Positions 7,572-50,471 of a DNA stretch of 64,000 bases are shown here, one piece after another. The stretch lies in the IMG/VR virus record IMGVR_UViG_3300027749_000039, positions 124,001 through 188,000 of that record. One strand, given 5' to 3'. Source of the DNA: a virus. The first letter of the stretch is position 1. Each line of letters opens with the position of its first letter. The translations under genes were made by a program, and so were the position numbers. The notes beneath the pieces were generated by a model that made no database searches, had not been told where the DNA came from, and worked only from the letters and a program-made list of their open reading frames with translations.

Positions 7572-7603
7572 GTTAGGCTCCTATGGATGCTTAACAAATA
7601 TAA

Positions 7604-7675: not shown

Positions 7676-7681
7676 CCAAAA

Positions 7682-7753: not shown

Positions 7754-7758
7754 CAATA

Positions 7759-7830: not shown

Positions 7831-7846
7831 CAAAAAATTTTTAAAA

Positions 7847-9347: not shown

Positions 9348-9360
9348 TTTCGTATCTTTG
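9331..9360 (+). promoter_or_regulatory. Promoter of tRNA array 2
   Basis: TTG 9331-9333, 19-nt spacer, TATCTTTG 9353-9360, followed by a UTR (AAAGCATTTTAACAATATAA) shared with the leader unit at 47 kb. Confidence 0.85.
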
Positions 9361-9409: not shown

Positions 9410-9466
9410 ATGAAAACAATATCATCGTCTAGTCGCAGTAGTTTAACTTTGGAAATCCAGAGATGA
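9410..9466 (+). CDS. Leader peptide B of tRNA array 2 (MKTISSSSRSSLTLEIQR)
   Basis: 18 residues with 6 Ser (TCA, TCG, TCT, AGT x3) and 2 Arg. The array behind it encodes Ser(GCT), Arg(ACG), a Ser-type tRNA and Ser(GGA): the leader is rich in exactly these two amino acids. Bases 9454-9460 near the end of the ORF can pair with 9491-9497 in the terminator stem-loop, giving a competing 7-bp helix. It lies 20 nt upstream of the terminator and within 300 nt of the end of serS. Attenuation by charged Ser/Arg tRNA level is inferred. Confidence 0.82.
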   Translation: MKTISSSSRSSLTLEIQR

Positions 9467-9485: not shown

Positions 9486-9517
9486 AAGCCTTGGATTGTA
9501 AAATTCAAGGCTTTTTT
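9486..9517 (+). terminator. Attenuator terminator B
   Basis: AAGCCTTG/CAAGGCTT stem with T-tract, between leader B and tRNA-Ser(GCT). Confidence 0.88.
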
Positions 9518-9523: not shown

Positions 9524-9611
9524 GGTGAGTTACTCAAGTGGTCAAAGAGGCTTGTTTGCTAAACAAGTAGGACGGTAAAACGTTGCGTGGGTTCGAACCC
9601 CACACTCACCG
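9524..9611 (+). tRNA. tRNA-Ser(GCT)
   Basis: GGTGAGT/ACTCACC, G73, anticodon arm CTTGT-TTGCTAA-ACAAG, long variable arm, T-arm GTGGG-TTCGAAC-CCCAC. Confidence 0.9.
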
Positions 9612-9617
9612 CCAAAA

Positions 9618-9653
9618 TATACAGATAATTGCGGGTTCGAGACCCGTTCTGGA
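9618..9653 (+). pseudogene. tRNA 3' fragment (T-arm minihelix)
   Basis: GCGGG-TTCGAGA-CCCGT T-arm flanked by CAGA/TCTG, without D or anticodon arm. Probable remnant of a deleted tRNA. Confidence 0.5.
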
Positions 9654-9664
9654 TACAAAAATAT

Positions 9665-9738
9665 GGTCTCATCGTTCAATGGATTTAGGATACTTGGCTA
9701 CGAACTAAGAGATTGGGGTTCGAATCCCTATGAGACTA
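9665..9738 (+). tRNA. tRNA-Arg(ACG)
   Basis: GGTCTCA/TGAGACT, anticodon arm CTTGG-CTACGAA-CTAAG, T-loop TTCGAAT. A34 would need deamination to inosine to read CGN. Confidence 0.87.
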
Positions 9739-9744
9739 CTAATA

Positions 9745-9832
9745 GGAAAGTTGGCAGAGCGGTTTAATGCGCTGGCACTGAAGCCGGTGACTGGCAAAAG
9801 CCGGTCCGTGAGTTCGAATCTCATACTTTCTT
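9745..9832 (+). tRNA. tRNA-Ser-like (TGA), altered anticodon loop
   Basis: GGAAAGT/ACTTTCT, the same 5' acceptor as Ser(TGA) at 7348. Long variable arm GACTGGC-AAAA-GCCGGTC. The loop is 6 nt (ACTGAA) or 8 nt depending on stem register, with C before TGA in place of U33. T73 is unusual for Ser. Confidence 0.7.
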
Positions 9833-9836
9833 ATAT

Positions 9837-9926
9837 GGAGAAGTAAAACGAAATTGGTATCGTCCCTGATTGGAAATCAGGTTATCGGGTCAAACTGGTA
9901 TGTAGGTTCGAGTCCTATTTTCTCCG
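9837..9926 (+). tRNA. tRNA-Ser(GGA)
   Basis: GGAGAAG/TTTCTCC, G73, anticodon arm CCTGA-TTGGAAA-TCAGG, long variable region, T-loop TTCGAGT. Confidence 0.88.
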
Positions 9927-9970
9927 CAATGTTTCAAAAAAAGAAATATACTTAATAATACACAATTAAA

Positions 9971-18661: not shown

Positions 18662-18760
18662 ATGAAAACTACAATAATCACAACACAAGTAATCGGCGCA
18701 TATGAAGCGGGTTATGCCTATGAGGGAACATCTCATGGAGTTGGTAAGTTATGTAGTTAA
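18662..18760 (+). CDS. Leader peptide C of tRNA array 3 (Thr/Gly/Ile/Ala/Tyr/Glu)
   Basis: 32 codons: 5 Thr, 5 Gly, 3 Ile, 3 Ala, 3 Tyr, 2 Glu. The array that follows encodes Tyr x2, Glu x3, Ala x3 and Gly x2, plus two degenerate tRNAs. The block AYEAGYAYEG is made only of these four amino acids. Bases 18738-18744 (GAGTTGG) can pair with 18790-18796 in the terminator, giving a 7-bp antiterminator. Thr and Ile are not matched by intact tRNAs in this array. Confidence 0.78.
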   Translation: MKTTIITTQVIGAYEAGYAYEGTSHGVGKLCS

Positions 18761-18782: not shown

Positions 18783-18817
18783 AAAGCATCCAACTCAAAA
18801 AGTTGGATGCTTTTTTT
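18783..18817 (+). terminator. Attenuator terminator C
   Basis: 13-bp stem AAAGCATCCAACT with complement, loop CAAAA, T-tract; between leader C and tRNA-Tyr. Confidence 0.9.
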
Positions 18818-18827: not shown

Positions 18828-18908
18828 GGGAGTGTTGGGCAATTGGCTGGCCCGCCTGACTGTAAATCAGGTTCTTCGGACATGGGGGTTCAAATCCCTC
18901 CACTCTCA
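18828..18908 (+). tRNA. tRNA-Tyr(GTA)
   Basis: GGGAGTG/CACTCTC, anticodon arm CCTGA-CTGTAAA-TCAGG, long variable arm, T-loop TTCAAAT. Confidence 0.9.
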
Positions 18909-18915
18909 CCAAATT

Positions 18916-18995
18916 CGTTCAGTTGTCTAGCGGCAATGACTGGGAGCTGTAACCTCCCCTCTTCGGATTCGTAGGTTCGAGTCCTACCTGAACGA
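18916..18995 (+). tRNA. tRNA-Tyr(GTA)
   Basis: CGTTCAG/CTGAACG, anticodon arm GGGAG-CTGTAAC-CTCCC, variable arm, T-arm GTAGG-TTCGAGT-CCTAC. Confidence 0.88.
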
Positions 18996-19002
18996 CAAAA
19001 AT

Positions 19003-19089
19003 ATACTGGTATTATTAACAGCGGGATAGATTACCAAATAGGAGGTGAAAGTCCTTATGACCGTACAGAGAAAGGCTTTGTGTATATTT
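19003..19089 (+). other. Unassigned structured segment in array 3
   Basis: ATATAC/GTATAT closes about 85 nt containing AGGA-GGTGAAAG-TCCT and CAGAG/CTTTG hairpins. No T-loop or anticodon arm, so not a recognisable tRNA. Confidence 0.35.
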
Positions 19090-19095
19090 TTATCT

Positions 19096-19167
19096 GCTAC
19101 CATAGATTAATCGGTAAATCGTGGCTCTTTCACAGCCAAGTAGGGGGATCGTAACCCCTTGGTAGTA
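19096..19167 (+). tRNA. tRNA-Glu(TTC)
   Basis: GCTACCA/TGGTAGT, D-stem GATT/AATC, anticodon arm TGGCT-CTTTCAC-AGCCA, T-loop ATCGTAA (A54, T58). Confidence 0.88.
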
Positions 19168-19174
19168 CAAACAA

Positions 19175-19246
19175 GGCCCAGTAGATTACTGGCTAAATCG
19201 TTGCACTTTCACTGCAAAGAAGACGGATCGAACCCGTTCTGGGCTG
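19175..19246 (+). tRNA. tRNA-Glu(TTC)
   Basis: GGCCCAG/CTGGGCT, G73, anticodon arm TTGCA-CTTTCAC-TGCAA, T-loop ATCGAAC (A54, A58). Confidence 0.87.
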
Positions 19247-19253
19247 CAAGGGT

Positions 19254-19277
19254 GTTAGTTATTCCGGAATAACTAAC
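19254..19277. repeat. 24-nt perfect palindrome
   Basis: GTTAGTTATTCC followed by its exact complement, then TTT. Lies between tRNA-Glu and a degenerate tRNA; could be a weak terminator or a processing signal. Confidence 0.7.
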
Positions 19278-19280
19278 TTT

Positions 19281-19348
19281 AGTATAGTAGCTCAATTGGT
19301 AGAGCGGTGGTGATTCACAGGCAGTAGGTTCAAAACCTATCTATACAC
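19281..19348 (+). pseudogene. Truncated tRNA (Ile-like), 68 nt
   Basis: D-arm GCTC/GAGC and T-arm GTAGG-TTCAAAA-CCTAT are intact. The acceptor has an A1-A72 mismatch. The anticodon arm plus variable region is about 5 nt too short, leaving a GTG/CAC stem with loop GTGATT. Confidence 0.5.
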
Positions 19349-19354
19349 AAAATT

Positions 19355-19433
19355 AACAAGTCAGGTTTGACAAGCGGCTTAAGTCACCTTCCTCTCAAGA
19401 AGGACATCATGGGTTCGAATCCCATACTTGATT
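19355..19433 (+). tRNA. tRNA-Glu(CTC)
   Basis: AACAAGT/ACTTGAT with one mismatch, anticodon arm CCTTC-CTCTCAA-GAAGG, T-arm ATGGG-TTCGAAT-CCCAT. Long D-region; T73 is atypical for Glu. Confidence 0.72.
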
Positions 19434-19492
19434 CACAGAAAAGGTTATCTGGGTGGATTTTTCAACAGAAAATGAAACTCCGAGCCTTAGAC

Positions 19493-19566
19493 GGGGCGGC
19501 ATGTACCAAGGCTGGCGAAGAACACTTGCAATGTTCCTGTGGTGAGTTCAATTCTCATCCGCTCCA
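19493..19566 (+). tRNA. tRNA-Ala(TGC)
   Basis: GGGGCGG/CCGCTCC, A73, anticodon arm GAACA-CTTGCAA-TGTTC, T-arm GTGAG-TTCAATT-CTCAT. Confidence 0.85.
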
Positions 19567-19615
19567 CGAAGTGAAGGAAAACACGATAAACCCGTCTGCT
19601 AGGACGTAAAATAAC

Positions 19616-19687
19616 GCAGAGATAGTATAACGGTTATTACACTGGCTTGCCAAGCCGGATATGGGAGTTCGATTCTCCTTCTCTGCT
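19616..19687 (+). tRNA. tRNA-Gly(GCC)
   Basis: GCAGAGA/TCTCTGC, T73, loop TTGCCAA, T-arm GGGAG-TTCGATT-CTCCT. Confidence 0.9.
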
Positions 19688-19693
19688 CTAAAA

Positions 19694-19741
19694 ATGGTTC
19701 GACCGCTAAATCGAGTTAGTGAAAATCTACATTCGAACCAT
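19694..19741 (+). other. 48-nt closed hairpin element
   Basis: 9-bp stem ATGGTTCGA/TCGAACCAT enclosing CGCTAA/TTAGTG. tRNA-like closing sequence without arms; function unknown. Confidence 0.4.
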
Positions 19742-19745
19742 ATGA

Positions 19746-19818
19746 GGGGGATTAGTTGTAATTGGCAAAACGTGGGCTTTGCAAGTCTGAGTTGCCGGAT
19801 CGTTGCCGGCATCCTCCA
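19746..19818 (+). tRNA. tRNA-Ala(TGC), second copy
   Basis: GGGGGAT/ATCCTCC, A73, loop TTTGCAA with a wobble-rich stem, T-stem GCCGG/CCGGC with T-loop ATCGTTG (A54, T58). Confidence 0.83.
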
Positions 19819-19874
19819 CAACAAAATAGTGATAGAGCGGCTTTGAACTTTTATATATAAAAATAAAAGTTCAA

Positions 19875-20510
19875 TTGCATCACACAATTTATAAAATAAC
19901 CAATTTAATAAATGGCAAAATTTATATTGGAAAACACTCAACAAATGATATTAAAGATAACTACTACGGTAGTGGGAAATTAATTAAAAGTGCTATAGAA
20001 AAATATGGTATTATTAATTTCACAAAAGAAATTTTGTTTAATTTTCAATCAGAGGAAGAAGCTTATGCCAAGGAAAAGGAAATAGTAAATGAAAGTTTCA
20101 TAAAAAGAAAAGATGTTTATAACCTTATAATAGGGGGTGATACATTTGAAGCTATTAATTCCAATTTAGAATTAAGAAAAGCTAAAAATAAGAAAGCTGC
20201 ATTAATTATGAATTCTGTAAATTGGAATAATCCAGAATTTAGAAAAAGGCAAACTGATAAAATGATATTACAAAATAAAAAATTGCATAAAGAAGGAATT
20301 CTTAAAAGTGTTGATTGGACCGGAAAGAAACATAAGGATGAAAGCAAAGAGAAAATGAGGGAAAAGGCAAAATTGAGAATAGGTGATAAAAACTCTTCAT
20401 TTGGAACTTGTTGGATATATAATGAAAATGAAAGTAAGAAAATAAAAAAAGAAGATTTAGAAAACTACTTATCTATTGGATGGATAAAAGGTAGAAAAAT
20501 TAAATTTTAA
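19875..20510 (+). CDS. GIY-YIG homing endonuclease inside tRNA array 3
   Basis: 211 residues. The GIY-YIG domain starts at once: IYKITNLINGKIYIGKHS, then YYGSGKLIKSAIEKYG and a Glu in EAYAKEKEIV. A NUMOD3-like segment (TGKKHKDESKEKMREKAK) follows, and the C-terminus WIYNENESKKIKKEDLENYL is a DNA-binding tail common in phage GIY-YIG enzymes. The start is taken as TTG 19875 since no suitable ATG exists. It splits array 3 between Ala and Gly tRNAs. Confidence 0.87.
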   Translation: MHHTIYKITNLINGKIYIGKHSTNDIKDNYYGSGKLIKSAIEKYGIINFTKEILFNFQSEEEAYAKEKEIVNESFIKRKDVYNLIIGGDTFEAINSNLELRKAKNKKAALIMNSVNWNNPEFRKRQTDKMILQNKKLHKEGILKSVDWTGKKHKDESKEKMREKAKLRIGDKNSSFGTCWIYNENESKKIKKEDLENYLSIGWIKGRKIKF

Positions 20511-20513
20511 TAA

Positions 20514-20596
20514 GCGAGTATAGTATAACGGAGGCGAAAGCCGTATTATGCTGGTCTTCCAAACCGGATATGAGAGTTCGATTCTCTCTACTCGCT
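20514..20596 (+). tRNA. tRNA-Gly(TCC) with D-loop insertion
   Basis: GCGAGTA/TACTCGC, T73, loop CTTCCAA, T-arm GAGAG-TTCGATT-CTCTC. Relative to Gly(GCC) the D-loop gains about 11 nt that form GGC-GAAA-GCC, a GNRA tetraloop hairpin. Starts 3 nt after the homing endonuclease stop. Confidence 0.83.
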
Positions 20597-20603
20597 CTAA
20601 AAT

Positions 20604-20678
20604 GGGTTGTATATTTTAATGATAGAATGCTGCGGGATTATAAAGCGGCGGTGTGAGACCAATTCTCATTATAACCCC
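20604..20678 (+). pseudogene. tRNA-like with 11-nt anticodon loop
   Basis: GGGTTGT/ATAACCC and D-stem ATTT/GAAT pair. The anticodon stem GCTGC/GCGGC encloses GGGATTATAAA, and the T-loop is ACCAATT. TAT (Ile) would be the best anticodon guess. Probably degenerate. Confidence 0.45.
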
Positions 20679-20719
20679 AAATGAAGGAAATTCTTCATTA
20701 TAAAAATAAAAATTAAAGT

Positions 20720-21019
20720 ATGTCGGATCGAAGATATTATGTCTTTATGAAAAGCGGTAGAAAGTTCTGCGTAGAAGAATATGGTAAGACATATACTGAT
20801 TGGGGTAATTATAACCCAGCTACGAAGAAGATTGAAAAGGTTGCATCTAAATCAAGTGAGATTATTGATGAACATAACACTAAAATAACGAAAGAAAACG
20901 GATATAAGAATATCTGTATGTTAGAAACTGGTACATCACCAATGGCTTATATTGAAGCTATTGATACAAGTGGTGTAGAAAGATTTGAAGGTGTAGATTT
21001 TGTTACATACGAAGATTAA
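20720..21019 (+). CDS. Hypothetical 99-residue protein inside array 3
   Basis: Begins MSDRRYYVFMKSGRKFCVEE; beta-rich, ends with acidic VDFVTYED. No family recognised. One of the few non-nuclease genes inside a tRNA array. Confidence 0.65.
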   Translation: MSDRRYYVFMKSGRKFCVEEYGKTYTDWGNYNPATKKIEKVASKSSEIIDEHNTKITKENGYKNICMLETGTSPMAYIEAIDTSGVERFEGVDFVTYED

Positions 21020-21020
21020 T

Positions 21021-21179
21021 ATGGAATTAAATATTCTAATAGAAAAGATTAAATCTAAAATTGATTTAACAGAAGAGGAAGAAATATATTATTTAGTTAA
21101 TGGCTTAAAAATGAGCGAAAAAGAAGCTAAAAGAATTGTATACCGACCTAAACCTGTAATAGGAAAATTAATAGATTAA
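21021..21179 (+). CDS. Hypothetical 52-residue protein
   Basis: Starts 1 nt after the previous stop. Charged helix with a short basic tail (RIVYRPKPVIGKL). No family recognised. Confidence 0.6.
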   Translation: MELNILIEKIKSKIDLTEEEEIYYLVNGLKMSEKEAKRIVYRPKPVIGKLID

Positions 21180-21186
21180 TTAGAAA

Positions 21187-21194
21187 TATATTTG
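21187..21194 (+). promoter_or_regulatory. -7 element TATATTTG before tRNA-Ala and alaS
   Basis: TATATTTG about 70 nt before tRNA-Ala(GGC); no clear -33 TTG. Confidence 0.5.
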
Positions 21195-21217
21195 TAAAAA
21201 GATATATTTCTACTACA

Positions 21218-21262
21218 TGCCGGTTCAAGGAACGCACACCCTGGCGAGGGTGCCTACCGGCT
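21218..21262 (+). other. Two-hairpin RNA before tRNA-Ala
   Basis: GCCGGT/ACCGGC closes a GTTC-AAG-GAAC hairpin and GCACaCCCT-GGCG-AGGGTGC. The second hairpin mimics an Ala (GGC) anticodon arm with a 6-nt loop. Possibly an armless tRNA remnant or a regulatory element. Confidence 0.4.
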
Positions 21263-21265
21263 CCA

Positions 21266-21338
21266 GGGGGATTAGCTCATTTGGTAGAGCATTTGTATGG
21301 CATACAAAAGGCGACCGGTTCGATTCCGGTATCCTCCA
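21266..21338 (+). tRNA. tRNA-Ala(GGC)
   Basis: GGGGGAT/ATCCTCC, A73, anticodon arm TTTGT-ATGGCAT-ACAAA, T-arm ACCGG-TTCGATT-CCGGT. Directly upstream of the AlaRS gene. Confidence 0.9.
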
Positions 21339-21365
21339 CTAAAAAATATAAAACAAATAAATAGA

Positions 21366-33808: not shown

Positions 33809-33910
33809 ATGAAAAACATTAATAGAAATAATAATACCATAAATTTAGTCATAAATAACGTGAATACGTTATGCGTGATTAGAGGAGTTATGGGGTTAAG
33901 TCTATTATGA
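33809..33910 (+). CDS. Leader peptide D of tRNA array 4 (Asn/Leu/Ile/Val-rich)
   Basis: 33 codons: 9 Asn, 5 Leu, 4 Ile, 4 Val, 2 Arg, 2 Thr, 1 Cys, so 27 of 33 residues. The array encodes Leu, Ile x3, Arg, Val x2, Asn x2, Thr x2 and Cys: the same seven isotypes. Unlike the other leaders, no strong antiterminator helix with the terminator was found; only two 5-bp options (GATTA/TAATC, GAGTT/AACTC). Confidence 0.8.
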   Translation: MKNINRNNNTINLVINNVNTLCVIRGVMGLSLL

Positions 33911-33937: not shown

Positions 33938-33971
33938 AATCTCAAACTCAAAAAGTTTGAGATTTTTTTTT
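33938..33971 (+). terminator. Attenuator terminator D
   Basis: AATCTCAAACT-CAAA-AGTTTGAGATT stem and T-tract, between leader D and tRNA-Leu(TAA). Confidence 0.9.
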
Positions 33972-33981: not shown

Positions 33982-34069
33982 GGCGCAGTGATGAAACTGG
34001 TTAGTACATGCAGGACTTAAAATCCTGTGGACAGAAATGTCCGTGTCGGTTCGACTCCGACCTGCGCTA
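33982..34069 (+). tRNA. tRNA-Leu(TAA)
   Basis: GGCGCAG/CTGCGCT, anticodon arm CAGGA-CTTAAAA-TCCTG, classic long variable arm GGACA-GAAA-TGTCC, T-arm GTCGG-TTCGACT-CCGAC. Confidence 0.92.
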
Positions 34070-34076
34070 CAAAACT

Positions 34077-34150
34077 CGGCGGGTAGCTTAGACGGTAAAA
34101 GCACGAATCTTATAAATTCGAGATAGTGGGATCGTTACCCACCCCTCCGA
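34077..34150 (+). tRNA. tRNA-Ile(TAT)
   Basis: CGGCGGG/CCCTCCG with one mismatch, anticodon arm CGAAT-CTTATAA-ATTCG, T-stem GTGGG/CCCAC with T-loop ATCGTTA. A TAT anticodon is rare in bacteria, which normally use CAT modified by TilS. Confidence 0.85.
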
Positions 34151-34155
34151 CAAAT

Positions 34156-34228
34156 GGTTCTATCGTACAATGGATTAGTACAAGGCTCTTCTAAAGCCTT
34201 TATGTGGGTTCGAATCCCGCTGGAACTA
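34156..34228 (+). tRNA. tRNA-Arg(TCT)
   Basis: GGTTCTA/TGGAACT, anticodon arm AGGCT-CTTCTAA-AGCCT, T-loop TTCGAAT. Reads AGA/AGG, frequent in this genome. Confidence 0.88.
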
Positions 34229-34279
34229 CAATCGTTATTAATTTTTATTAGGGAGTTCGGTTTATATAATATATAATTT

Positions 34280-35086
34280 ATGAGACATAAACAAACAGAA
34301 CAAACTAAAAAGAAGTTATCAGAAATAAGAAAAAAATGGTTAGCAGATAATCCAGAAAAACATCCATGGAAAAGAAAAGATAAATTCTTATCTAAGCCTT
34401 GTGAATTTTTCAAAAAGAAATTATTGGAAAATAATTTAACTTTTTCGGAAGAACAAAACTTACTTGAAGGAAGAGCATATTCGGTAGATGTAGTTTTTTA
34501 TGATAAAATGATTGGATTTAAAATAAATGGAAATCAACATTATAATTCAGATAAAACTCTTAAAGATTATTATAAAAAAAGGAAAGAAGAGATTGAAATT
34601 TTAGGATGGAAATTATATGATATACATTATACAAAAGTTTATAATGAAAAATTTATAGAGGAAATAATAAAATTCATAAAAGAGCAAAAGGAAATTCCAA
34701 ATTTTAATTTTGAATTTTTTATAAAAAAGGTTAAAAAAATATGTAAAGATTGTGGTAAAGAAATATCATATAATAGCATAGAAAGATGTTTAAAATGTCA
34801 TAATATATCCAGAAGAACAGAAAAATATGAAGTTAATTTAAAATATAAAATAGGTGCTAATAAAAAAGAAAAATTTATAAAAAATTGTAATTGTGGTGAA
34901 ATAATATCCATAAATTCAAATAATTGTAAGGAATGTTTTGATAAAATACAAAGAAAAATAGTTGATAGACCAAGTTTAGAAATTTTATTAGAAGAGGTTA
35001 AAGATATAGGATATAGTGCGGTTGGTAGAAAATATGGAGTTAGTGATAATTCTATAAGAAAGTGGATAAAAAATTATCAAAAATAA
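34280..35086 (+). CDS. Vsr/PD-(D/E)xK-type homing endonuclease, active site altered
   Basis: 268 residues. NUMOD3-like N-terminus (KKLSEIRKKWLADNPEKHPW), a nuclease-like core SVDVVFYDKMIGFKINGNQHY, two zinc ribbons (CKDC/CLKC and CNCG/CKEC) and the shared HTH tail DRPSLEILLEEVKDIGYSAV...IRKWIKNY. The related enzyme at 47640 has LEIDGKQH where this has FKINGNQH: the E and D of the catalytic ExD are K and N. It may be inactive or use other residues. Splits array 4 after tRNA-Arg. Confidence 0.78.
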   Translation: MRHKQTEQTKKKLSEIRKKWLADNPEKHPWKRKDKFLSKPCEFFKKKLLENNLTFSEEQNLLEGRAYSVDVVFYDKMIGFKINGNQHYNSDKTLKDYYKKRKEEIEILGWKLYDIHYTKVYNEKFIEEIIKFIKEQKEIPNFNFEFFIKKVKKICKDCGKEISYNSIERCLKCHNISRRTEKYEVNLKYKIGANKKEKFIKNCNCGEIISINSNNCKECFDKIQRKIVDRPSLEILLEEVKDIGYSAVGRKYGVSDNSIRKWIKNYQK

Positions 35087-35090
35087 AAAT

Positions 35091-35162
35091 TGTCGTATAG
35101 CTTAGTGGGGAAGCGTCAGCAGAAGTAGCTGAAGGGCATAGGTTCAATTCCTGTTGCGACTA
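35091..35162 (+). tRNA. tRNA, isotype uncertain (loop AGAAGTA)
   Basis: All arms pair well (D GCTT/AAGC, anticodon TCAGC/GCTGA, T ATAGG/CCTGT), but the loop AGAAGTA has G at position 33. Nominal anticodon AAG would mean Leu without a long variable arm. T1-T72 mismatch. Confidence 0.6.
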
Positions 35163-35169
35163 CAAATAA

Positions 35170-35241
35170 GGTTCCTTAACTCAGAGGCAGAGTGCTACTT
35201 TTACATGGTAGAAGTCGGGATTTCAAAATTCCCAGGAACCA
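35170..35241 (+). tRNA. tRNA-Val(TAC)
   Basis: GGTTCCT/AGGAACC, anticodon arm CTACT-TTTACAT-GGTAG, T-loop TTCAAAA. Confidence 0.87.
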
Positions 35242-35248
35242 CAAAAAT

Positions 35249-35320
35249 TGGAATGTAGCTCAGAGGCAGAGCAGGATCCTGTTAAGATCAAGGTCGAGAT
35301 ATCGTAATTCTCCATTCCAG
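35249..35320 (+). tRNA. tRNA-Asn(GTT)
   Basis: TGGAATG/CATTCCA, G73, loop CTGTTAA, T-arm GAGAT-ATCGTAA-TTCTC (A54, T58). Confidence 0.87.
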
Positions 35321-35325
35321 CAAAT

Positions 35326-35397
35326 AGTCTTATAGCTCAAAGGCAGAGTGCCTGTTCGACATACAGGAGGTTGCGATATCGTAATTCGCTAAGACTA
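35326..35397 (+). tRNA. tRNA-Val(GAC), C33
   Basis: AGTCTTA/TAAGACT, anticodon arm CCTGT-TCGACAT-ACAGG: position 33 is C. T-arm GCGAT-ATCGTAA-TTCGC. Confidence 0.82.
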
Positions 35398-35406
35398 CAA
35401 ATAAAG

Positions 35407-35480
35407 GGGCGTATGGTGAAATTGGTTTATCACGTCTGACTGTTAATCAGTTATTATAGGTTCGAGTCCTATTGTGCCCG
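35407..35480 (+). tRNA. tRNA-Asn(GTT)
   Basis: GGGCGTA/TGTGCCC, G73, CTGA-CTGTTAA-TCAG, T-arm ATAGG-TTCGAGT-CCTAT. Confidence 0.85.
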
Positions 35481-35507
35481 CTAATTAAATAAAAAAAGTA
35501 AATAATA

Positions 35508-35586
35508 CGGAACGTACCGAGTCACACTGATAATGTGGATATTCGTAAAGGTGTTGAAAATGAGATTTCAAGATTCTCCGTTCCGA
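35508..35586 (+). tRNA. tRNA-Ile(GAT) without a D-arm
   Basis: CGGAACG/CGTTCCG and anticodon arm TCACA-CTGATAA-TGTGG are clear. Only about 7 nt separate acceptor and anticodon stems, so no D-arm fits, while the variable region is about 23 nt. T-arm GAGAT-TTCAAGA-TTCTC. Confidence 0.65.
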
Positions 35587-35592
35587 CAAAAT

Positions 35593-35665
35593 GCCAAATT
35601 AGTATAGCGGCGATTATACCAACCTTGTAAGTTGCGAGACACCAGTTCGAGTCTGGTATTTGGCT
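35593..35665 (+). tRNA. tRNA-Thr(TGT)
   Basis: GCCAAAT/ATTTGGC, loop CTTGTAA, T-arm ACCAG-TTCGAGT-CTGGT. Confidence 0.86.
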
Positions 35666-35702
35666 CCACTACTGATCAGAATCCAGTGATTCAGATCTAA
35701 AA

Positions 35703-35778
35703 CGGACTATAGCTCATTATTGGTTAGAGCGTCACGCTGATAACGTGAAGGTGGTTGGATCGAAGCCAGCTAGTCCGA
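35703..35778 (+). tRNA. tRNA-Ile(GAT)
   Basis: CGGACTA/TAGTCCG, A73, TCACG-CTGATAA-CGTGA, T-arm GTTGG-ATCGAAG-CCAGC. Confidence 0.88.
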
Positions 35779-35784
35779 CAAAAT

Positions 35785-35857
35785 GCTAAAGTGTCTGAAT
35801 GGTTGAGGAACTTTCTTGGTATGAAAGATAATATCGGTTCGAATCCGTTCTTTAGCT
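35785..35857 (+). tRNA. tRNA-Thr(GGT)
   Basis: GCTAAAG/CTTTAGC, anticodon arm CTTTC-TTGGTAT-GAAAG, T-loop TTCGAAT. Confidence 0.87.
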
Positions 35858-35863
35858 CTTAAT

Positions 35864-35936
35864 GGCGCCTTGGTCGAGTGGTTATAGGCGCAGGTCTGCA
35901 AAACCTGATACATTGGTTCAATTCCAGTAGGCGCCT
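35864..35936 (+). tRNA. tRNA-Cys(GCA)
   Basis: GGCGCCT/AGGCGCC, T73, CAGGT-CTGCAAA-ACCTG, T-arm ATTGG-TTCAATT-CCAGT. Confidence 0.92.
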
Positions 35937-35949
35937 CAAATTAAATAAA

Positions 35950-36951: not shown

Positions 36952-36981
36952 TTGTAGTTTCAAAACTTTATTGTATCTTTG
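36952..36981 (+). promoter_or_regulatory. Promoter of tRNA array 5
   Basis: TTG 36952-36954, spacer 19, TATCTTTG 36974-36981. Confidence 0.85.
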
Positions 36982-37033: not shown

Positions 37034-37102
37034 ATGAAAAACATCAATCTAAATATGAATTTGCTTAATCTAATGGAAACATTGGACAGGATTCTTATAT
37101 AG
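37034..37102 (+). CDS. Leader peptide E of tRNA array 5 (Leu/Asn/Met/Ile-rich)
   Basis: 22 codons: 6 Leu (CTA, TTG, CTT), 5 Asn, 2 internal Met, 3 Ile. The array encodes Leu(TAG), Leu(AAG), Leu(CAA) and a CAT tRNA. The best antiterminator of the set: 37083-37093 (TGGACAGGATT) is an almost exact copy of the terminator 3' arm and can pair with 37129-37139 over 11 bp. An extra hairpin AACTTTA/TAAAGTT sits between stop and terminator. A ribosome reaching the stop would cover the segment and permit termination. Confidence 0.83.
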   Translation: MKNINLNMNLLNLMETLDRILI

Positions 37103-37126
37103 ATAACTTTATCATAAAGTTTTTAT

Positions 37127-37160
37127 AAAATCCTGTTCACAATCTGAACAGGATTTTTTT
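37127..37160 (+). terminator. Attenuator terminator E
   Basis: AATCCTGTTCA-CAATC-TGAACAGGATT and T-tract before tRNA-Leu(TAG). Confidence 0.92.
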
Positions 37161-37163: not shown

Positions 37164-37239
37164 GGCACTCTATCCCAACAAGAGCAGAGGACTCAGCTTT
37201 AGAACCTGAGAGTTGTGGGTTCAAATCCCACGAGTGTCA
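37164..37239 (+). tRNA. tRNA-Leu(TAG), short variable loop
   Basis: GGCACTC/GAGTGTC, loop TTTAGAA with C31-C39 mismatch, T-arm GTGGG-TTCAAAT-CCCAC. No long variable arm, unlike bacterial tRNA-Leu. Confidence 0.75.
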
Positions 37240-37299
37240 CACAACTCGAACTCTGGTAGATAAAAAATAAGGGACTGTTATGTATATAATATATACATA

Positions 37300-38133
37300 A
37301 TGGAAAATAAAAAATTTATTGAAATATGCCAAACAGCCGTAAGTATGGCTGAGGCAGCTAGAATTATAGGAATTGGATTTAATTCTTTTAAGAAAAAAGC
37401 ATTAATATTAAATTGTTATAAAACTAATCAAAATTGGAGAAAAGGTAAAACTGTTTTAAATGATGATAGAATAGAAAGTAAACATACTTTATTTTGTGAA
37501 AATTCTTCCGCAAGAAGAGAATATATTAAAGGTTTAATTATTAAACATAATTTAATTGAATATAAATGTTTTGATTGTGGATTAAAAAATGAATGGAATG
37601 GGAAAATTTTAAACTTACAGTTAGACCATATAAATGGTGTAAAAAATGATAATAGACTTGAAAATTTAAGATTTATGTGCCCTAATTGTCATTCACAAAC
37701 AGAAACATGGTGTAAAAGTAAAGGTAATTCAATAAATAATTTAGATATAGAAATCTTAATTAATACTATAAATAAGTCATTTTCTATGACTAAATTAATT
37801 GATAAATTAGGAATCTATGATACACAAAATAATAGAAAGAAAATCAAAAAAATAATGATAGAAAATAATCTATCTTTTGAATTTGATAAACAGGAAAAGA
37901 ATAAAATAAATAGTTGTAAGTGTGGTAAATCTATTAAAAAATCAAGTAAAATGTGTTCTAAATGTTGGCAGATAGAACAAAGAAAAGTTAATAGACCTAC
38001 ATATGAGCAGTTAAAAAAAGAAGTAGAAGAAATTGGATATTCAGCAACAGGTAGAAAATATAATGTTTCTGATAATTGCATAAGAAAATGGTTAAAAGCA
38101 TATGTACCCCAATTGGCAGAGGGACACCGTTAA
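37300..38133 (+). CDS. HNH homing endonuclease inside tRNA array 5
   Basis: 277 residues. N-terminal HTH (AVSMAEAARIIGIGFNSFKK), HNH core with CFDCGLKNEW, LQLDHINGVKNDNRLENLRF and MCPNCHSQ, then zinc ribbon CKCGK/CSKC and the shared tail NRPTYEQLKKEVEEIGYSAT...IRKWLKAY. The last 12 codons run into tRNA-Leu(AAG): 36 nt are both coding sequence and tRNA. Confidence 0.88.
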   Translation: MENKKFIEICQTAVSMAEAARIIGIGFNSFKKKALILNCYKTNQNWRKGKTVLNDDRIESKHTLFCENSSARREYIKGLIIKHNLIEYKCFDCGLKNEWNGKILNLQLDHINGVKNDNRLENLRFMCPNCHSQTETWCKSKGNSINNLDIEILINTINKSFSMTKLIDKLGIYDTQNNRKKIKKIMIENNLSFEFDKQEKNKINSCKCGKSIKKSSKMCSKCWQIEQRKVNRPTYEQLKKEVEEIGYSATGRKYNVSDNCIRKWLKAYVPQLAEGHR

Positions 38134-38172
38134 GAGCGGTGATAGGTGTCGGATCGTTGCCGACTATATGCA
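38098..38172 (+). tRNA. tRNA-Leu(AAG), short variable loop
   Basis: GCATATG/TATATGC, anticodon arm CACCG-TTAAGAG-CGGTG, T-arm GTCGG-ATCGTTG-CCGAC. Its first 36 nt overlap the endonuclease ORF. Confidence 0.82.
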
Positions 38173-38240
38173 CAAAGATTGCGCTGATGAGAATTGTAGG
38201 TGCAATTTCTAGTTGTAGAGTATTTCACAATACTCTCTCT

Positions 38241-38314
38241 ACCGAAGTGATGTAATTGGTAAACATCTTATTTTCAAAAAATAAGTTTTGAGGGATCGTA
38301 GCCCTTCTTCGGTA
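38241..38314 (+). tRNA. tRNA-Leu(CAA), short variable loop
   Basis: ACCGAAG/CTTCGGT, loop TTCAAAA on stem TTATT/AATAA, T-arm GAGGG-ATCGTAG-CCCTT. No long variable arm. The 38175-38240 stretch holds a GAGTATT/AATACTC hairpin only. Confidence 0.8.
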
Positions 38315-38372
38315 CTATCATTGAAATAGTTGTATATTATGATAAATGGTATAGTTATGATATAATTAATAA

Positions 38373-38457
38373 GCCGCTATGAGCAGATGTGGTAATTGCG
38401 ACGGACTCATAATCCGTTTTCTGTAAGATAGTGTTGGTTCGAGTCCAACTAGCGGTA
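38373..38457 (+). tRNA. tRNA(CAT) with long variable arm: Met, or Ile2
   Basis: GCCGCTA/TAGCGGT, anticodon arm ACGGA-CTCATAA-TCCGT, about 15-nt variable arm, T-arm GTTGG-TTCGAGT-CCAAC. A class II shape is odd for a CAT tRNA. Confidence 0.78.
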
Positions 38458-38512
38458 CAGACATAATAAATATAAAAAGTTATTATGATCACATAAAAGA
38501 AAATTTATTAAA

Positions 38513-47085: not shown

Positions 47086-47181
47086 ATGAAAAACATTCTA
47101 AACATACAAAACCCTCAACAACCGCAAGTTGATGTCGATCAGGATCCTGATACGATGAGGACTAACCATGTTAGAATGTAA
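47086..47181 (+). CDS. Leader peptide F of tRNA array 6 (Gln/Asp/Pro-rich)
   Basis: 31 codons: 5 Gln, 4 Asp, 3 Pro, concentrated in the block NPQQPQVDVDQDPD. The array encodes Asp x3, Pro, Gln x3, and GlnRS. Bases 47160-47166 (GACTAAC), near the end of the ORF, can pair with 47210-47216 in the terminator 5' arm. Same architecture as leaders A, B, C and E. Confidence 0.84.
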   Translation: MKNILNIQNPQQPQVDVDQDPDTMRTNHVRM

Positions 47182-47206
47182 ATGAATTATATTACATTTT
47201 TAATAG

Positions 47207-47237
47207 CCAGTTAGTCGAAAGATTAACTGGTTTTTTT
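47207..47237 (+). terminator. Attenuator terminator F
   Basis: CCAGTTAGTC-GAAA-GATTAACTGG and T-tract before the Asp tRNAs. Confidence 0.9.
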
Positions 47238-47261: not shown

Positions 47262-47350
47262 GGTTACGGCGAATAATGGCTGGTTCGCTACTCTGTCACA
47301 GTAGTAAGTAGGTTAAAACCGAAAAGAGGGTTCGATTCCCTTCGTAACCG
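47262..47350 (+). tRNA. tRNA-Asp(GTC) with long variable region
   Basis: GGTTACG/CGTAACC, G73, CTACT-CTGTCAC-AGTAG, T-arm GAGGG-TTCGATT-CCCTT. The variable region is about 20 nt and contains GGTT-AAA-ACC, unusual for Asp. Confidence 0.82.
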
Positions 47351-47355
47351 CAAAA

Positions 47356-47429
47356 GGCACCATATATCAATTGGTTAGATTTTCCGCCTGTCACATGGAA
47401 GGCTACGGGTTCGAGCCCCGTTGGTGTCG
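47356..47429 (+). tRNA. tRNA-Asp(GTC)
   Basis: GGCACCA/TGGTGTC, G73, loop CTGTCAC with a C-A mismatch in the anticodon stem, T-arm ACGGG-TTCGAGC-CCCGT. Confidence 0.83.
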
Positions 47430-47434
47430 CAAAA

Positions 47435-47508
47435 GGTCTGTTAGTAGAAATGGATACAATATCTCCCTGTCACGGAGAAGGTTGCCGGATCGTACCCGGT
47501 ACAGACCG
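47435..47508 (+). tRNA. tRNA-Asp(GTC)
   Basis: GGTCTGT/ACAGACC, G73, TCTCC-CTGTCAC-GGAGA, T-arm GCCGG-ATCGTAC-CCGGT (A54, T58). Confidence 0.87.
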
Positions 47509-47513
47509 CTAAA

Positions 47514-47586
47514 CGAGTATGAAGTGTAACCAGGTTGCACACGAATTTTGGGAATTCGTAGAGACGTTCGAATCGTACATGCTCGA
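47514..47586 (+). tRNA. tRNA-Pro(TGG)
   Basis: CGAGTAT/ATGCTCG, anticodon arm CGAAT-TTTGGGA-ATTCG, T-loop TTCGAAT on a weak T-stem. Confidence 0.8.
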
Positions 47587-47639: not shown

Positions 47640-48569
47640 ATGGATATAATTAAAATTATAAATGAAAGTTTTTCCATTAATGATTTAGCCAAAAAATTAT
47701 ATGGTTATTCTAATGGCAAGAGCAATAAAAAAGCAATAGAAGTTTTAAAACAAAACGGATTTGATATATCTTTTTTTGACGGAAAAAGTAAAAATAGAAA
47801 ATATCAAAAAATAAAAATTATTTGTCCTATTTGTTTTGTGGAATTTGAAACAACTGAAAATGGTAAAAAAACATGTTCTTCTTCATGTTCTAATTCTTAT
47901 TTTCAACACGGGAAAAATAATCCTGATTTTGATCAAGAAAAATATGAGGAAAGATATAAAAAAGTATCTAATACATTAAAAACTAATATTCCTTGGAATA
48001 AAGGCAAAAATGATAAGGCAAAAATAAAAACATGTCTAAATTGTAAAATTGAATTTGAACCTAAAACACACACACAGAAATATTGTTGCAAAAAATGCCA
48101 ATTTTCATGTAAAGAGTATAGAAAATTATTAAGTGACAATGTTAAAGAAAGAATAAAAAATGGAACACATAAAGGTTGGCAATCAAGAAATATTGAGAGT
48201 TATCCTGAAAAATTCTTTAAAAAAGTATTAAAAAATAATGGTATTGAATATATACCAAATAAAACAATAATAAAAAAAGACTATAATATAGAAGGCAATG
48301 GTAATTATTTTTTAGATTTTTATATAAAAGAAGGAAATATAGATTTAGAAATAGACGGCAAGCAACATGATTATAGGGTCGAACATGATAATGAACGAGA
48401 TAACAATTTATCAAAGCATTTCAACATTTATAGAATAAAATGGCAGTCAATAAATAGCGAAACAGGAAAACAATATATAAAAAAAGAAATTAAAAAATTT
48501 ATAAAATATTATAACAAAATGAAAAACTTAACTTTACAACAACAGCAACAAATGATTAAACTAGATTGA
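47640..48569 (+). CDS. Zinc-finger PD-(D/E)xK homing endonuclease in array 6
   Basis: 309 residues. HTH-like N-terminus, two zinc fingers (CPICFVEF/CSSSC and CLNCKIEF/CCKKC), then a Vsr/DUF559-like nuclease: YFLDFYIKEGNIDLEIDGKQ with the ExD pair. Its last 16 codons are the Gln leader peptide G read in frame. It separates Asp/Pro from Gln tRNAs. Free-standing homing is the likely role. Confidence 0.82.
   Translation: MDIIKIINESFSINDLAKKLYGYSNGKSNKKAIEVLKQNGFDISFFDGKSKNRKYQKIKIICPICFVEFETTENGKKTCSSSCSNSYFQHGKNNPDFDQEKYEERYKKVSNTLKTNIPWNKGKNDKAKIKTCLNCKIEFEPKTHTQKYCCKKCQFSCKEYRKLLSDNVKERIKNGTHKGWQSRNIESYPEKFFKKVLKNNGIEYIPNKTIIKKDYNIEGNGNYFLDFYIKEGNIDLEIDGKQHDYRVEHDNERDNNLSKHFNIYRIKWQSINSETGKQYIKKEIKKFIKYYNKMKNLTLQQQQQMIKLD
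48519..48569 (+). CDS. Leader peptide G (MKNLTLQQQQQMIKLD) before Gln tRNAs and GlnRS
   Basis: 16 codons with five consecutive Gln codons (CAA, CAA, CAG, CAA, CAA), beginning ATGAAAAAC like leaders D-F. A terminator follows at 48591, then Gln(TTG) x2, Gln(CTG) and glnS. Bases 48567-48573, overlapping the stop, can pair with 48593-48600 with one bulge, competing with the terminator. The homing endonuclease frame runs in frame into it, so the peptide can be made from its own ATG or as the endonuclease C-terminus. Confidence 0.85.
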   Translation: MKNLTLQQQQQMIKLD

Positions 48570-48590
48570 TGGTATTGTATAGTTATGTAT

Positions 48591-48622
48591 AAACCTATCA
48601 GTCTAAACTGATAGGTTTTTTT
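48591..48622 (+). terminator. Attenuator terminator G
   Basis: AAACCTATCAGT-CTAA-ACTGATAGGTTT and T-tract between leader G and tRNA-Gln. Confidence 0.92.
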
Positions 48623-48624: not shown

Positions 48625-48710
48625 GCTCCTCTGGTGTAATTGGTTAACATACTTGATTTTGAGTCAAGGGACAGGTAATGCAAGTCAGGGTTCGAATCCT
48701 TGGAGGAGTA
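48625..48710 (+). tRNA. tRNA-Gln(TTG) with long variable region
   Basis: GCTCCTC/GAGGAGT, CTTGA-TTTTGAG-TCAAG, about 17-nt variable region (unusual for Gln), T-arm CAGGG-TTCGAAT-CCTTG. Confidence 0.84.
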
Positions 48711-48715
48711 CAAAT

Positions 48716-48787
48716 AGTCCAATAGTGTAACGGTTAGCACAACTCTCTTTGACAGAGTTAGTCTTGGTTCGAATCCAGGTTGAACTA
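48716..48787 (+). tRNA. tRNA-Gln(TTG)
   Basis: AGTCCAA/TTGAACT with one mismatch, ACTCT-CTTTGAC-AGAGT, T-arm CTTGG-TTCGAAT-CCAGG. Confidence 0.87.
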
Positions 48788-48793
48788 CTACAA

Positions 48794-48864
48794 TGTTCTA
48801 TGATGTAATGGTAGCATAAGAGCTTCTGATTCTCTTTGTATTGGTTCGAGTCCAATTAGAACAA
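48794..48864 (+). tRNA. tRNA-Gln(CTG)
   Basis: TGTTCTA/TAGAACA, loop TTCTGAT within AGAGC/TCTCT, T-arm ATTGG-TTCGAGT-CCAAT. 18 nt before glnS. Confidence 0.84.
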
Positions 48865-48881
48865 CTAAAAATAATAATTTT

Positions 48882-50471
48882 ATGAATTTTATAGAAGAAA
48901 AAATTATTGAAAAAGTAAATCGTGGAATTAAGCCGGTGCTTCGCTTTCCGCCCGAACCAAACGGAAAATCATTGCACTTGGGGCATGCCAAGTCAATGTG
49001 TTTAAATTTTGGATTGGCAGAGAAATATAATGGTGAATGTAATTTAAGGTTTGATGATACAAATCCTTCTGCTGAAAAAGCGGAATATGTAGATGCAATC
49101 ATTAATGATATAAAGTGGCTTGGATTTACTCCAACACGTATAGAACACACATCTAATTATTTTGAAATAATATTTGAATATGCGGTTAGATTAATTGAAA
49201 AAGGGTTAGCATATGTTGATGATTCTACATCAGAAGAAATTGCTAGTATGAAAGGAACTCTTAATGCACCTGGTATTGATTCACCATATAAATCAAGAAC
49301 TATTTCCGAAAACTTAGATTTATTTTATCGTATGAGAAATGGTGAATTTAATAATGGTAAAAAAACATTAAGATTAAATATTGACATGACTTCACCTAAT
49401 ATGATATTAAGAGATCCAGTTATATATCGGATTATGCATGAAACACATCATAATACAGGTGATAAATGGTGTATATATCCTTTATATGATTTTGCGCATC
49501 CGATATCTGATTATATTGAAAGTATATCTGATTCATTATGTACCTTGGAGTTTGAAGTTCATAGACCATTGTATAATTGGATATTAGAAAATTTAGATTT
49601 AAAATATCCGTTACCTGAGGAAACTGAGTTTGCTCGTTTAAATGTTTCTTATAATGTAATGAGTAAGAGGAAGTTAAAAACATTAGTAGATGAAAATTAT
49701 GTAACAGATTGGGATGATCCAAGATTATTAACATTATCTGGATTAAGAAGAAAAGGATATACACCGACATCAATTAAATCATTTTGTGAAACAGTTGGTT
49801 ACACTAAAAGAGATTCTTTGATTGATTTTAGACTATTAGAAGAGTGTTTACGTTCTGACTTAAATAAGTTAGCATTAAGATATATGGTCGTTTTAAATCC
49901 ACTTAAAATTACTATTATTAATTATAGTGGTGAAGAAAAATGTGTTATTGAAAATAATCCTGAAAATGTAGAAGATGGAATAAGAGAAGTTATTTTTACT
50001 AAGGAATTATTTATTGAAGCAGATGATTTTAGAGAAATCGCTAATAACAAATATCATAGATTAAAAATAGGTGGTGAAGTTAGATTAAAGGGAGCTTATA
50101 TTATAAAAGCAGAAGAAGTAGTAAAAGATGAATTAGGTAATATAATTGAAGTTAAATGTATTTATGATCCTACTACTAAATCAGGTGAATCTGATAGAAA
50201 AGTAAAGGGCACTATACATTGGGTATCTACTTCTTATAATAAAGAAATTATTGTAAATGAGTATGAAAATTTATTTACAGAAGAAATACCAGAAACTTTT
50301 GATATTATCAAAAGTTTAATAATAAGTAAACCTGCAATAGCAGAATTAGCAATAGAAAATACTGTTATTAACAAAGCAGTTCAATTTATGAGGAATGGCT
50401 ACTTTACTTTAGATAAAGATGGTAGTTTTATAAAAACAGTGTCATTAAAAGATGGATTTAAAGAAAAATAA
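48882..50471 (+). CDS. glnS: Glutaminyl-tRNA synthetase
   Basis: 529 residues, near the bacterial length of about 550. Class I: FPPEPNGKSLHLGHAKSMCL (HIGH), NLRFDDTNPSAEK, and MSKRKLKTLV (KMSKS variant). The C-terminal half forms the beta-barrel anticodon-binding domains. The first motif FPPEPNG distinguishes GlnRS from GluRS. It follows three tRNA-Gln genes and sits behind attenuators F and G, so enzyme and tRNAs are probably co-regulated by Gln charging. Confidence 0.96.
   Translation: MNFIEEKIIEKVNRGIKPVLRFPPEPNGKSLHLGHAKSMCLNFGLAEKYNGECNLRFDDTNPSAEKAEYVDAIINDIKWLGFTPTRIEHTSNYFEIIFEYAVRLIEKGLAYVDDSTSEEIASMKGTLNAPGIDSPYKSRTISENLDLFYRMRNGEFNNGKKTLRLNIDMTSPNMILRDPVIYRIMHETHHNTGDKWCIYPLYDFAHPISDYIESISDSLCTLEFEVHRPLYNWILENLDLKYPLPEETEFARLNVSYNVMSKRKLKTLVDENYVTDWDDPRLLTLSGLRRKGYTPTSIKSFCETVGYTKRDSLIDFRLLEECLRSDLNKLALRYMVVLNPLKITIINYSGEEKCVIENNPENVEDGIREVIFTKELFIEADDFREIANNKYHRLKIGGEVRLKGAYIIKAEEVVKDELGNIIEVKCIYDPTTKSGESDRKVKGTIHWVSTSYNKEIIVNEYENLFTEEIPETFDIIKSLIISKPAIAELAIENTVINKAVQFMRNGYFTLDKDGSFIKTVSLKDGFKEK

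What the first reader, a model, noticed from the sequence alone, without database searches (positions are those of the whole stretch)
37083..37139. Mutually exclusive antiterminator helix in the Leu leader, and equivalents in five others
37083-37093 near the end of leader E copies the terminator 3' arm and can pair over 11 bp with the terminator 5' arm at 37129-37139. Comparable pairs: 5684-5692 with 5749-5757, 9454-9460 with 9491-9497, 18738-18744 with 18790-18796, 47160-47166 with 47210-47216, 48567-48573 with 48593-48600. A ribosome finishing the leader would cover the first segment; one stalled at upstream codons would leave it free. Only leader D lacks a strong pair.
Basis: partly seen in the sequence, partly recalled or inferred. 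Interest (0 to 1): 0.92.

Follow-up and report, generated by a model that had tools for sequence, protein, structure and literature searches.

The report
Phage tRNA operons controlled by attenuation
A large virus of Bacteroidetes bacteria has put each of its regulated transfer-RNA gene clusters behind a tiny 'test gene' rich in exactly the codons those tRNAs read, so that the sequence predicts the cluster is switched on only when ribosomes run short of those tRNAs; together the seven switches cover all 20 amino acids, and related giant phages have the same design.

Summary
The finding is real and larger than stated. Seven tRNA operons of this window (part of a 190.6 kb virus record) are each preceded by a leader ORF of 16-33 codons rich in codons for the amino acids of the tRNAs that follow, then an intrinsic terminator. 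A segment near the leader's end is complementary to the terminator's 5' arm. The Leu helix is exactly as described (11 bp).

I found 61 such leaders in 13 viral records. Leader composition follows the downstream tRNAs: in the window the true assignment is the best of 5,040. Leader segment and terminator arm coevolve (P<5e-5). Cognate codons reach 82-90% in a zone 13-27 nt upstream of the segment, only in the leader frame, then fall to background, matching the distance from ribosomal A site to leading edge. E. coli thrL, leuL and ilvL show a similar layout.

Best explanation: ribosome-mediated transcription attenuation of phage tRNA genes: shortage of a charged tRNA stalls the ribosome, the antiterminator forms and the operon is transcribed. 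No published precedent was found. Corrections: leader D does have a pair; B, C and F pairs are individually weak; in leader A a ribosome at the stop codon would not cover the segment. Nothing is shown experimentally.

The parts
5632..5721 (+). Leader A, MKHFSSHKHSFKFWFSNQGSVEFCFKNAS; senses His, Lys, Phe, Trp
5684..5696 (+). Antiterminator segment of leader A, dG -14.0
5742..5777 (+). Terminator A, followed by T run
5787..7831 (+). tRNA operon A: His, His, Trp, Phe, Trp, Lys, Lys, Lys (SerRS gene follows at 7847-9115)
9353..9360 (+). TATCTTTG, Bacteroidetes-type -7 element upstream of leader B
9410..9466 (+). Leader B, MKTISSSSRSSLTLEIQR; senses Ser, Arg
9454..9460 (+). Antiterminator segment of leader B (7 bp; individually not beyond chance, p=0.44)
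9486..9513 (+). Terminator B
9524..9927 (+). tRNA operon B: Ser(gct), Arg(acg), a tRNA of unclear anticodon (probably Ser), Ser(gga)
18662..18760 (+). Leader C, MKTTIITTQVIGAYEAGYAYEGTSHGVGKLCS; senses Tyr, Glu, Gly, Ala
18738..18750 (+). Antiterminator segment of leader C, dG -11.6 (p=0.09)
18783..18813 (+). Terminator C
18828..21339 (+). tRNA operon C: Tyr, Tyr, Glu x3, Gly, Ala, Ala
33809..33910 (+). Leader D, MKNINRNNNTINLVINNVNTLCVIRGVMGLSLL; senses Asn, Ile, Arg, Thr, Leu, Val, Cys
33885..33897 (+).
33938..33964 (+). Terminator D
33982..35937 (+). tRNA operon D: Leu, Ile, Arg, Leu, Val, Asn, Val, Asn, Thr, Ile, Thr, Cys
36974..36981 (+). TATCTTTG, -7 element of leader E
37034..37102 (+). 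Leader E, MKNINLNMNLLNLMETLDRILI; senses Leu (CTA, TTG, CTT) and Met
37083..37093 (+). Antiterminator segment of leader E, 11 bp with 37129-37139
37127..37157 (+). Terminator E; its 5' arm (37129-37139) is shared between terminator and antiterminator
37164..38458 (+). tRNA operon E: Leu(tag), Leu(aag), Leu(caa), Met(cat), interrupted by an endonuclease-like ORF
47086..47181 (+). Leader F, MKNILNIQNPQQPQVDVDQDPDTMRTNHVRM; Pro, Asp (and Gln) codons
47160..47166 (+). Antiterminator segment of leader F (7 bp, p=0.19; conserved in homologues)
47205..47232 (+). Terminator F
47262..47585 (+). tRNA operon F: Asp, Asp, Asp and a fourth tRNA at 47515-47585 (Pro by its TGG anticodon), missed by ARAGORN
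48519..48569 (+). Leader G, MKNLTLQQQQQMIKLD; senses Gln
48562..48573 (+). Antiterminator segment of leader G, overlaps the stop codon, dG -13.2
48591..48618 (+). Terminator G
48625..50471 (+). Operon G: tRNA-Gln x3 (48625-48865) and GlnRS (48882-50471)

Best explanation
Each of these tRNA operons is controlled by ribosome-mediated transcription attenuation. A ribosome translates a short leader ORF whose codons are those read by the operon's own tRNAs. If all those charged tRNAs are plentiful, the ribosome runs on to the end of the leader and covers the antiterminator segment, or sits between its two halves. The terminator then forms and transcription stops before the tRNA genes. If any of the tRNAs is short, the ribosome stalls about 13 nt or more upstream of the segment and leaves it free. 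The segment pairs with the terminator's 5' arm while the 3' arm is still being made, and RNA polymerase reads on into the tRNA genes (and GlnRS in operon G). This is a negative-feedback supply controller for tRNAs. Shown by sequence: the architecture, the match of codons to tRNAs, the coevolving mutually exclusive helices, the spacing and the reading frame. Inferred: translation of the leaders, stalling, kinetic competition, the direction of the response and the physiological trigger.
For: Seven tRNA operons lie behind such a leader and terminator, and the true leader-operon assignment is the best of all 5,040 permutations (P=0.0002; likewise the best in G1, LR745206, G3, LR756502, V25 and V37). 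Homologues: 61 leaders in 13 records. V37 has a quite different grouping of tRNAs into operons and its leaders follow it ({Thr Tyr Gln Pro Lys Gly}, {Val Leu Cys}, {Phe Asp Ala Glu}, {Met His Ile Ser Asn Trp Arg}). The relative's leader E has two AGG codons and its operon a tRNA-Arg(cct); the window has neither. Pairing beyond shuffles and coevolution by swap test. Ruler: 84-90% cognate codons at -24 to -13 nt from the segment, 52% at -12, 23% at -9, 11% at 0; frame-specific, 82% against 13% and 12%; the last sensing codon tracks the segment position, r=0.90, median spacing 13 nt. E. coli thrL, leuL and ilvL show a similar layout. A Bacteroidetes -7 element lies upstream of 49 of 60 leaders, 7% expected. 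Two relatives with GlnRS but no adjacent tRNA have no leader either.
Against: At equilibrium the terminator is predicted to win in 52 of 61 leaders even with the segment free, so the switch must be kinetic; real E. coli attenuators behave the same in this calculation. B, C and F of the window are individually weak. There is no conserved protecting (1:2) hairpin (z -0.11), so an untranslated leader should default to read-through. Family F does not covary. In V27 two of four leaders lack a start codon. Nothing was measured.
Confidence: 0.88

Rival explanations
1. The same attenuators act mainly as detectors of host attack on tRNAs (anticodon nucleases, tRNA-cleaving toxins) or of host shut-off, and replace only the tRNA that has been destroyed.
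For: All 20 amino acids are represented among the sensing codons of the window, and the operons encode tRNAs rather than biosynthetic enzymes, so the output fits tRNA loss better than amino-acid shortage (inference). [quoted passage not shown]
Against: Nothing here ties the system to a particular nuclease. Ordinary codon demand would trigger it equally. This concerns the trigger, not the switch, so it can hold together with the best explanation.
Confidence: 0.25
2. The leader peptides themselves act (nascent-chain arrest or a functional peptide), and the codon bias is secondary.
For: Leaders of close homologues resemble one another.
Against: Order and sequence differ between phage groups while composition follows the tRNA set. 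Enrichment stops sharply 12 nt before the pairing segment, whose place relative to the stop codon varies.
Confidence: 0.04
3. Plain constitutive terminators behind small ORFs that match the tRNAs by chance.
For: Individual helices in B, C and F are no better than shuffled.
Against: Permutation, swap, frame and spacing tests.
Confidence: 0.01
4. The logic is reversed: stalling promotes termination, shutting off tRNA synthesis when translation fails.
For: Without a protecting hairpin, an untranslated leader is predicted to read through, so the system cannot be a simple copy of trp.
Against: The spacing places a stalled ribosome just short of the antiterminator segment, leaving it free, as in E. 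coli thr, leu and ilv.
Confidence: 0.05

Closest known systems
E. coli thr, ilvGMEDA and leu leader-peptide attenuators
   Same: Leader ORF with regulatory codons; antiterminator segment inside or at the end of the ORF; mutually exclusive intrinsic terminator; similar codon-to-segment spacing (compared directly).
   Different: Those control amino-acid biosynthesis enzymes in a bacterium. Here the targets are tRNA genes of a phage, one leader senses up to seven amino acids, and the set covers all 20.
E. coli trp attenuator (trpL)
   Same: Ribosome-mediated antitermination by regulatory codons.
   Different: In trpL the pairing segment lies beyond the ORF and a protecting 1:2 hairpin exists (general knowledge; my duplex search did not recover the classical trpL segment). 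No 1:2 hairpin is conserved here.
pheST (pheM) attenuation of phenylalanyl-tRNA synthetase in E. coli
   Same: Attenuation by leader codons acting on the tRNA-charging machinery (general knowledge, not tested here).
   Different: It controls a synthetase; here tRNA genes themselves, with GlnRS riding along in operon G.
T-box riboswitches
   Same: Sense the charging state of a named tRNA and control transcription (general knowledge).
   Different: They bind uncharged tRNA directly and need no leader translation; no Rfam T-box match in the window.
Leader-peptide attenuators reported upstream of amino-acid biosynthesis operons in Flavobacterium psychrophilum (PMC9723704)
   Same: Same mechanism in the phylum of the likely host, so the host machinery can probably support it.
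   Different: Chromosomal biosynthesis operons, not tRNA genes, not phage.
tRNA arrays of huge phages (PMC7162821)
   Same: Up to 67 tRNAs plus synthetases; genomes over 634 kb were predicted to infect Bacteroidetes (Mahaphage clade); LR745206 and LR756502 fit by size only.
   Different: The main text of that paper does not contain the words 'leader' or 'terminator'; regulation of the arrays is not described there.

Membership tests
Ribosome-mediated (leader-peptide) transcription attenuation, general | Short ORF upstream with a run of regulatory codons | tested here: met
   61 leaders; 82% cognate codons in the sensing zone against 12-13% in the other frames
Ribosome-mediated (leader-peptide) transcription attenuation, general | Regulatory codons cognate to the function of the downstream operon | tested here: met
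   True assignment best of 5,040 permutations in the window, best in most other genomes
Ribosome-mediated (leader-peptide) transcription attenuation, general | Intrinsic terminator between leader and first gene | tested here: met
Ribosome-mediated (leader-peptide) transcription attenuation, general | Alternative antiterminator helix that excludes the terminator | tested here: met
   dG beyond shuffles (Fisher P 9e-7 in window) and coevolution
Ribosome-mediated (leader-peptide) transcription attenuation, general | Spacing lets a ribosome stalled at the codons leave the antiterminator segment free | tested here: met
   Median 13 nt from last sensing codon to segment, r=0.90; similar in E. coli thrL, leuL, ilvL
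Ribosome-mediated (leader-peptide) transcription attenuation, general | Leader translated, and termination responds to shortage of the cognate charged tRNA | not testable with these tools
   Needs expression experiments
trp/his-type attenuator with protecting 1:2 hairpin | Upstream segment pairing with the antiterminator segment | tested here: not met
   z mean -0.11 over 61 leaders
T-box riboswitch | T-box covariance model match | tested here: not met
   No T-box among Rfam gathering-threshold matches
Rfam amino-acid leader families (Thr_leader and others) | Match at the curated score | tested here: not met
   Leader E region scores 24.3 bits for Thr_leader against a gathering score of 55

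The most novel reading that the evidence does not exclude
Huge Bacteroidetes phages run a feedback-controlled tRNA supply in which every regulated operon is switched on by ribosomes stalling for want of its own tRNAs. The leaders jointly represent all 20 amino acids. When operons are regrouped in evolution the leaders are rewritten to match, so the virus measures and repairs the host's decoding capacity tRNA by tRNA, possibly as a defence against tRNA-destroying immunity.
Probability: 0.65. Interest if true: 0.94.

Novelty: new variant of a known kind. Interest (0 to 1): 0.9.

Why it matters
Why phages carry dozens of tRNAs, and whether their expression is regulated at all, is an open question. 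Here the sequence itself predicts that each of these tRNA clusters is made only on demand, and which codons are sensed. I know of no earlier case of leader-peptide attenuation acting on tRNA genes, and the searches found none (open-access library only). It gives direct tests of tRNA sensing during infection, a natural set of single- and multi-codon stall sensors for all 20 amino acids, and a way to find such systems in other viruses.

Tried and rejected
Equilibrium folding with the ribosome as a mask does not separate the two states in 52 of 61 leaders, but real E. coli attenuators fail it too, so it was dropped as a test. MAFFT alignments of families G, A and D were too gappy for column-wise pair counting; replaced by the alignment-free swap test. 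Longest uninterrupted helix is a weak measure. The codon-box match for Leu, Arg and Ser (35 in-box, 13 out-of-box) is blurred by tRNAs that ARAGORN misses, so no strong claim is made. SerRS and the class II Asp/Lys/Asn-type synthetase found no relatives in viral contigs. DNA similarity of the region to annotated phages gave mostly endonuclease matches. Bacterial GlnRS loci and more distant phage GlnRS and SerRS loci gave no further leaders; the T4 tRNA operon has none. A chance explanation and a peptide-function explanation were considered and rejected. Two E. coli stretches did not help: one search missed hisL, and the trpL run did not recover its classical segment.

Full report
WHAT WAS CHECKED. 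The window is bases 124001-188000 of a 190,602-base virus record. It carries about 47 tRNA genes, all on the + strand; the rest of the record has none apart from one doubtful ARAGORN call. It also encodes Met-type, Ser, class II Asp/Lys/Asn-type and Gln tRNA synthetases. Promoter-like TAnnTTTG elements, typical of Bacteroidetes, lie upstream of most leaders, so a Bacteroidetes host is likely (inference).

THE OBSERVATION. Against 1000 dinucleotide shuffles, A, D, E and G are individually significant (p 0.002-0.009) while C (0.09), F (0.19) and B (0.44) are not. Fisher's combined P for the seven is 9e-7.

THE LEADERS MATCH THEIR tRNAs. In the window each leader ORF is rich in codons of the amino acids whose tRNAs follow: A His/Lys/Phe/Trp; B Ser/Arg; C Tyr/Glu/Gly/Ala; D Asn/Ile/Arg/Thr/Leu/Val/Cys; E Leu/Met; F Pro/Asp; G Gln. 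Of all 5,040 ways to assign leaders to operons, the true one scores best. The sensing zones of the seven leaders together represent all 20 amino acids.

HOMOLOGUES. GlnRS led to relatives in IMG/VR and to two huge-phage records, LR745206 (634,780 bases) and LR756502 (642,428 bases). Taking the tRNA regions of these records gave 61 leaders in 13 records. The most telling case is V37 (a 362-kb contig), whose tRNAs are grouped quite differently: its four leaders read T/Y/Q/P/K/G, V/L/C, F/D/A/E and M/H/I/S/N/W/R, in step with the tRNAs behind them. The relative closest to the window has two AGG codons in leader E and a tRNA-Arg(cct) in operon E; the window has neither. A GlnRS tree places leader-bearing phages in three separate spots, which may reflect separate acquisition of GlnRS rather than separate origins of the leaders.

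COEVOLUTION. For each family I paired every leader with every other genome's terminator of the same family. Own pairs are stronger than swapped ones for A, B, C, D and G (P 0.0006-0.008); families E, V and U have only two members each but agree; F and I show no clear difference. Over all families the observed total is below all 20,000 permutations. Leader-to-terminator pairing is also specific within a genome: own mean -12.5, other-family mean -7.9 kcal/mol.

THE RULER. Measured from the first base of the antiterminator segment, which was located by base pairing alone, cognate codons make up 84-90% of positions from -24 to -13, 52% at -12, 23% at -9 and 11% at 0. In the two other reading frames of the -27 to -13 zone the figures are 13% and 12%, against 82% in frame. 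The last sensing codon lies a median of 13 nt upstream of the segment, and the two positions correlate at r=0.90 across leaders and rho=0.90 across 12 families. From general knowledge, a bacterial ribosome reaches about 12-13 nt beyond the first base of its A-site codon. E. coli thrL, ilvL and leuL run through the same script show a similar layout.

MECHANISM. The most economical reading is ribosome-mediated attenuation. A stall on any sensing codon leaves the segment free, and it pairs with the terminator's 5' arm before the 3' arm is made; predicted energies before the 3' arm exists are -7 to -28 kcal/mol with the segment free against 0 to -11 without it. A ribosome that moves on blocks the pairing and the terminator forms. 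At equilibrium the terminator wins in most cases, as it does for the E. coli controls, so the choice must be kinetic. I found no conserved protecting hairpin, which predicts read-through when the leader is not translated at all. A multi-codon leader works as an OR gate: any one shortage opens the whole operon (inference).

WHAT IS NOT SHOWN. Translation of the leaders, stalling, termination efficiency, direction of response and physiological trigger are all inferred. Two of four leaders in V27 lack a start codon. Not every tRNA-bearing phage has the system: the tRNA region of G012 and the T4 tRNA operon have none. Two tRNA-Met genes of the window (5434-5593) lie ahead of leader A and are not behind any leader.

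COMPARISON WITH WHAT IS KNOWN. The mechanism belongs with leader-peptide attenuators of the thr/ilv/leu kind; all defining features testable by sequence were met. Attenuators of biosynthetic operons are reported in a flavobacterium (PMC9723704). The paper on huge phages describes their tRNAs and synthetases but its main text does not contain the words leader or terminator (PMC7162821). Literature searches found no attenuation of tRNA genes; the library holds open-access papers only. I therefore rate it a new variant of a known kind.

Noticed in passing
window 47640-48569: A 309-aa ORF with a DUF559 match runs in frame into leader G and shares its stop codon, so in this genome the Gln sensor is also the C-terminus of the upstream protein; no -7 element was found near leader G.
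   Followed up: partly
window 37300-38133: An endonuclease-like ORF sits inside the Leu tRNA operon, similar at DNA level to annotated HNH endonuclease genes of unrelated phages.
   Followed up: partly
L142:1180-1345 and L139:8650-8911: In the 353-kb phage V27 two of four leaders have no start codon: a promoter-like element abuts the middle of the leader in both.
   Followed up: partly
window 1777-3045, 7847-9115, 38908-40098, 48882-50471: Four tRNA synthetase genes lie among the tRNA operons: Met-type, Ser, a class II Asp/Lys/Asn-type and Gln. GlnRS directly follows the Gln tRNAs behind leader G.
   Followed up: partly
window 47515-47585: A fourth tRNA of operon F (anticodon TGG, Pro) is found by Rfam but missed by ARAGORN.
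   Followed up: yes
window 9744-9833: A tRNA that ARAGORN reads with a four-base anticodon (ctga), probably a Ser tRNA with an unusual anticodon loop.
   Followed up: no
L005 and L007: Two related phages keep GlnRS but have neither Gln tRNA genes nor a Gln leader next to it.
   Followed up: yes
L046 / L148: A GlnRS-divergent phage contig has a leader with six Gln codons (FQQQQQQ) and a long terminator before two Gln tRNAs, a possible separate origin.
   Followed up: partly
L017:3978-4115, L022:26082-26214, L023:34657-34789: Relatives have an eighth leader type (Ile/Gly/Ala) inside what is one operon in the window.
   Followed up: yes
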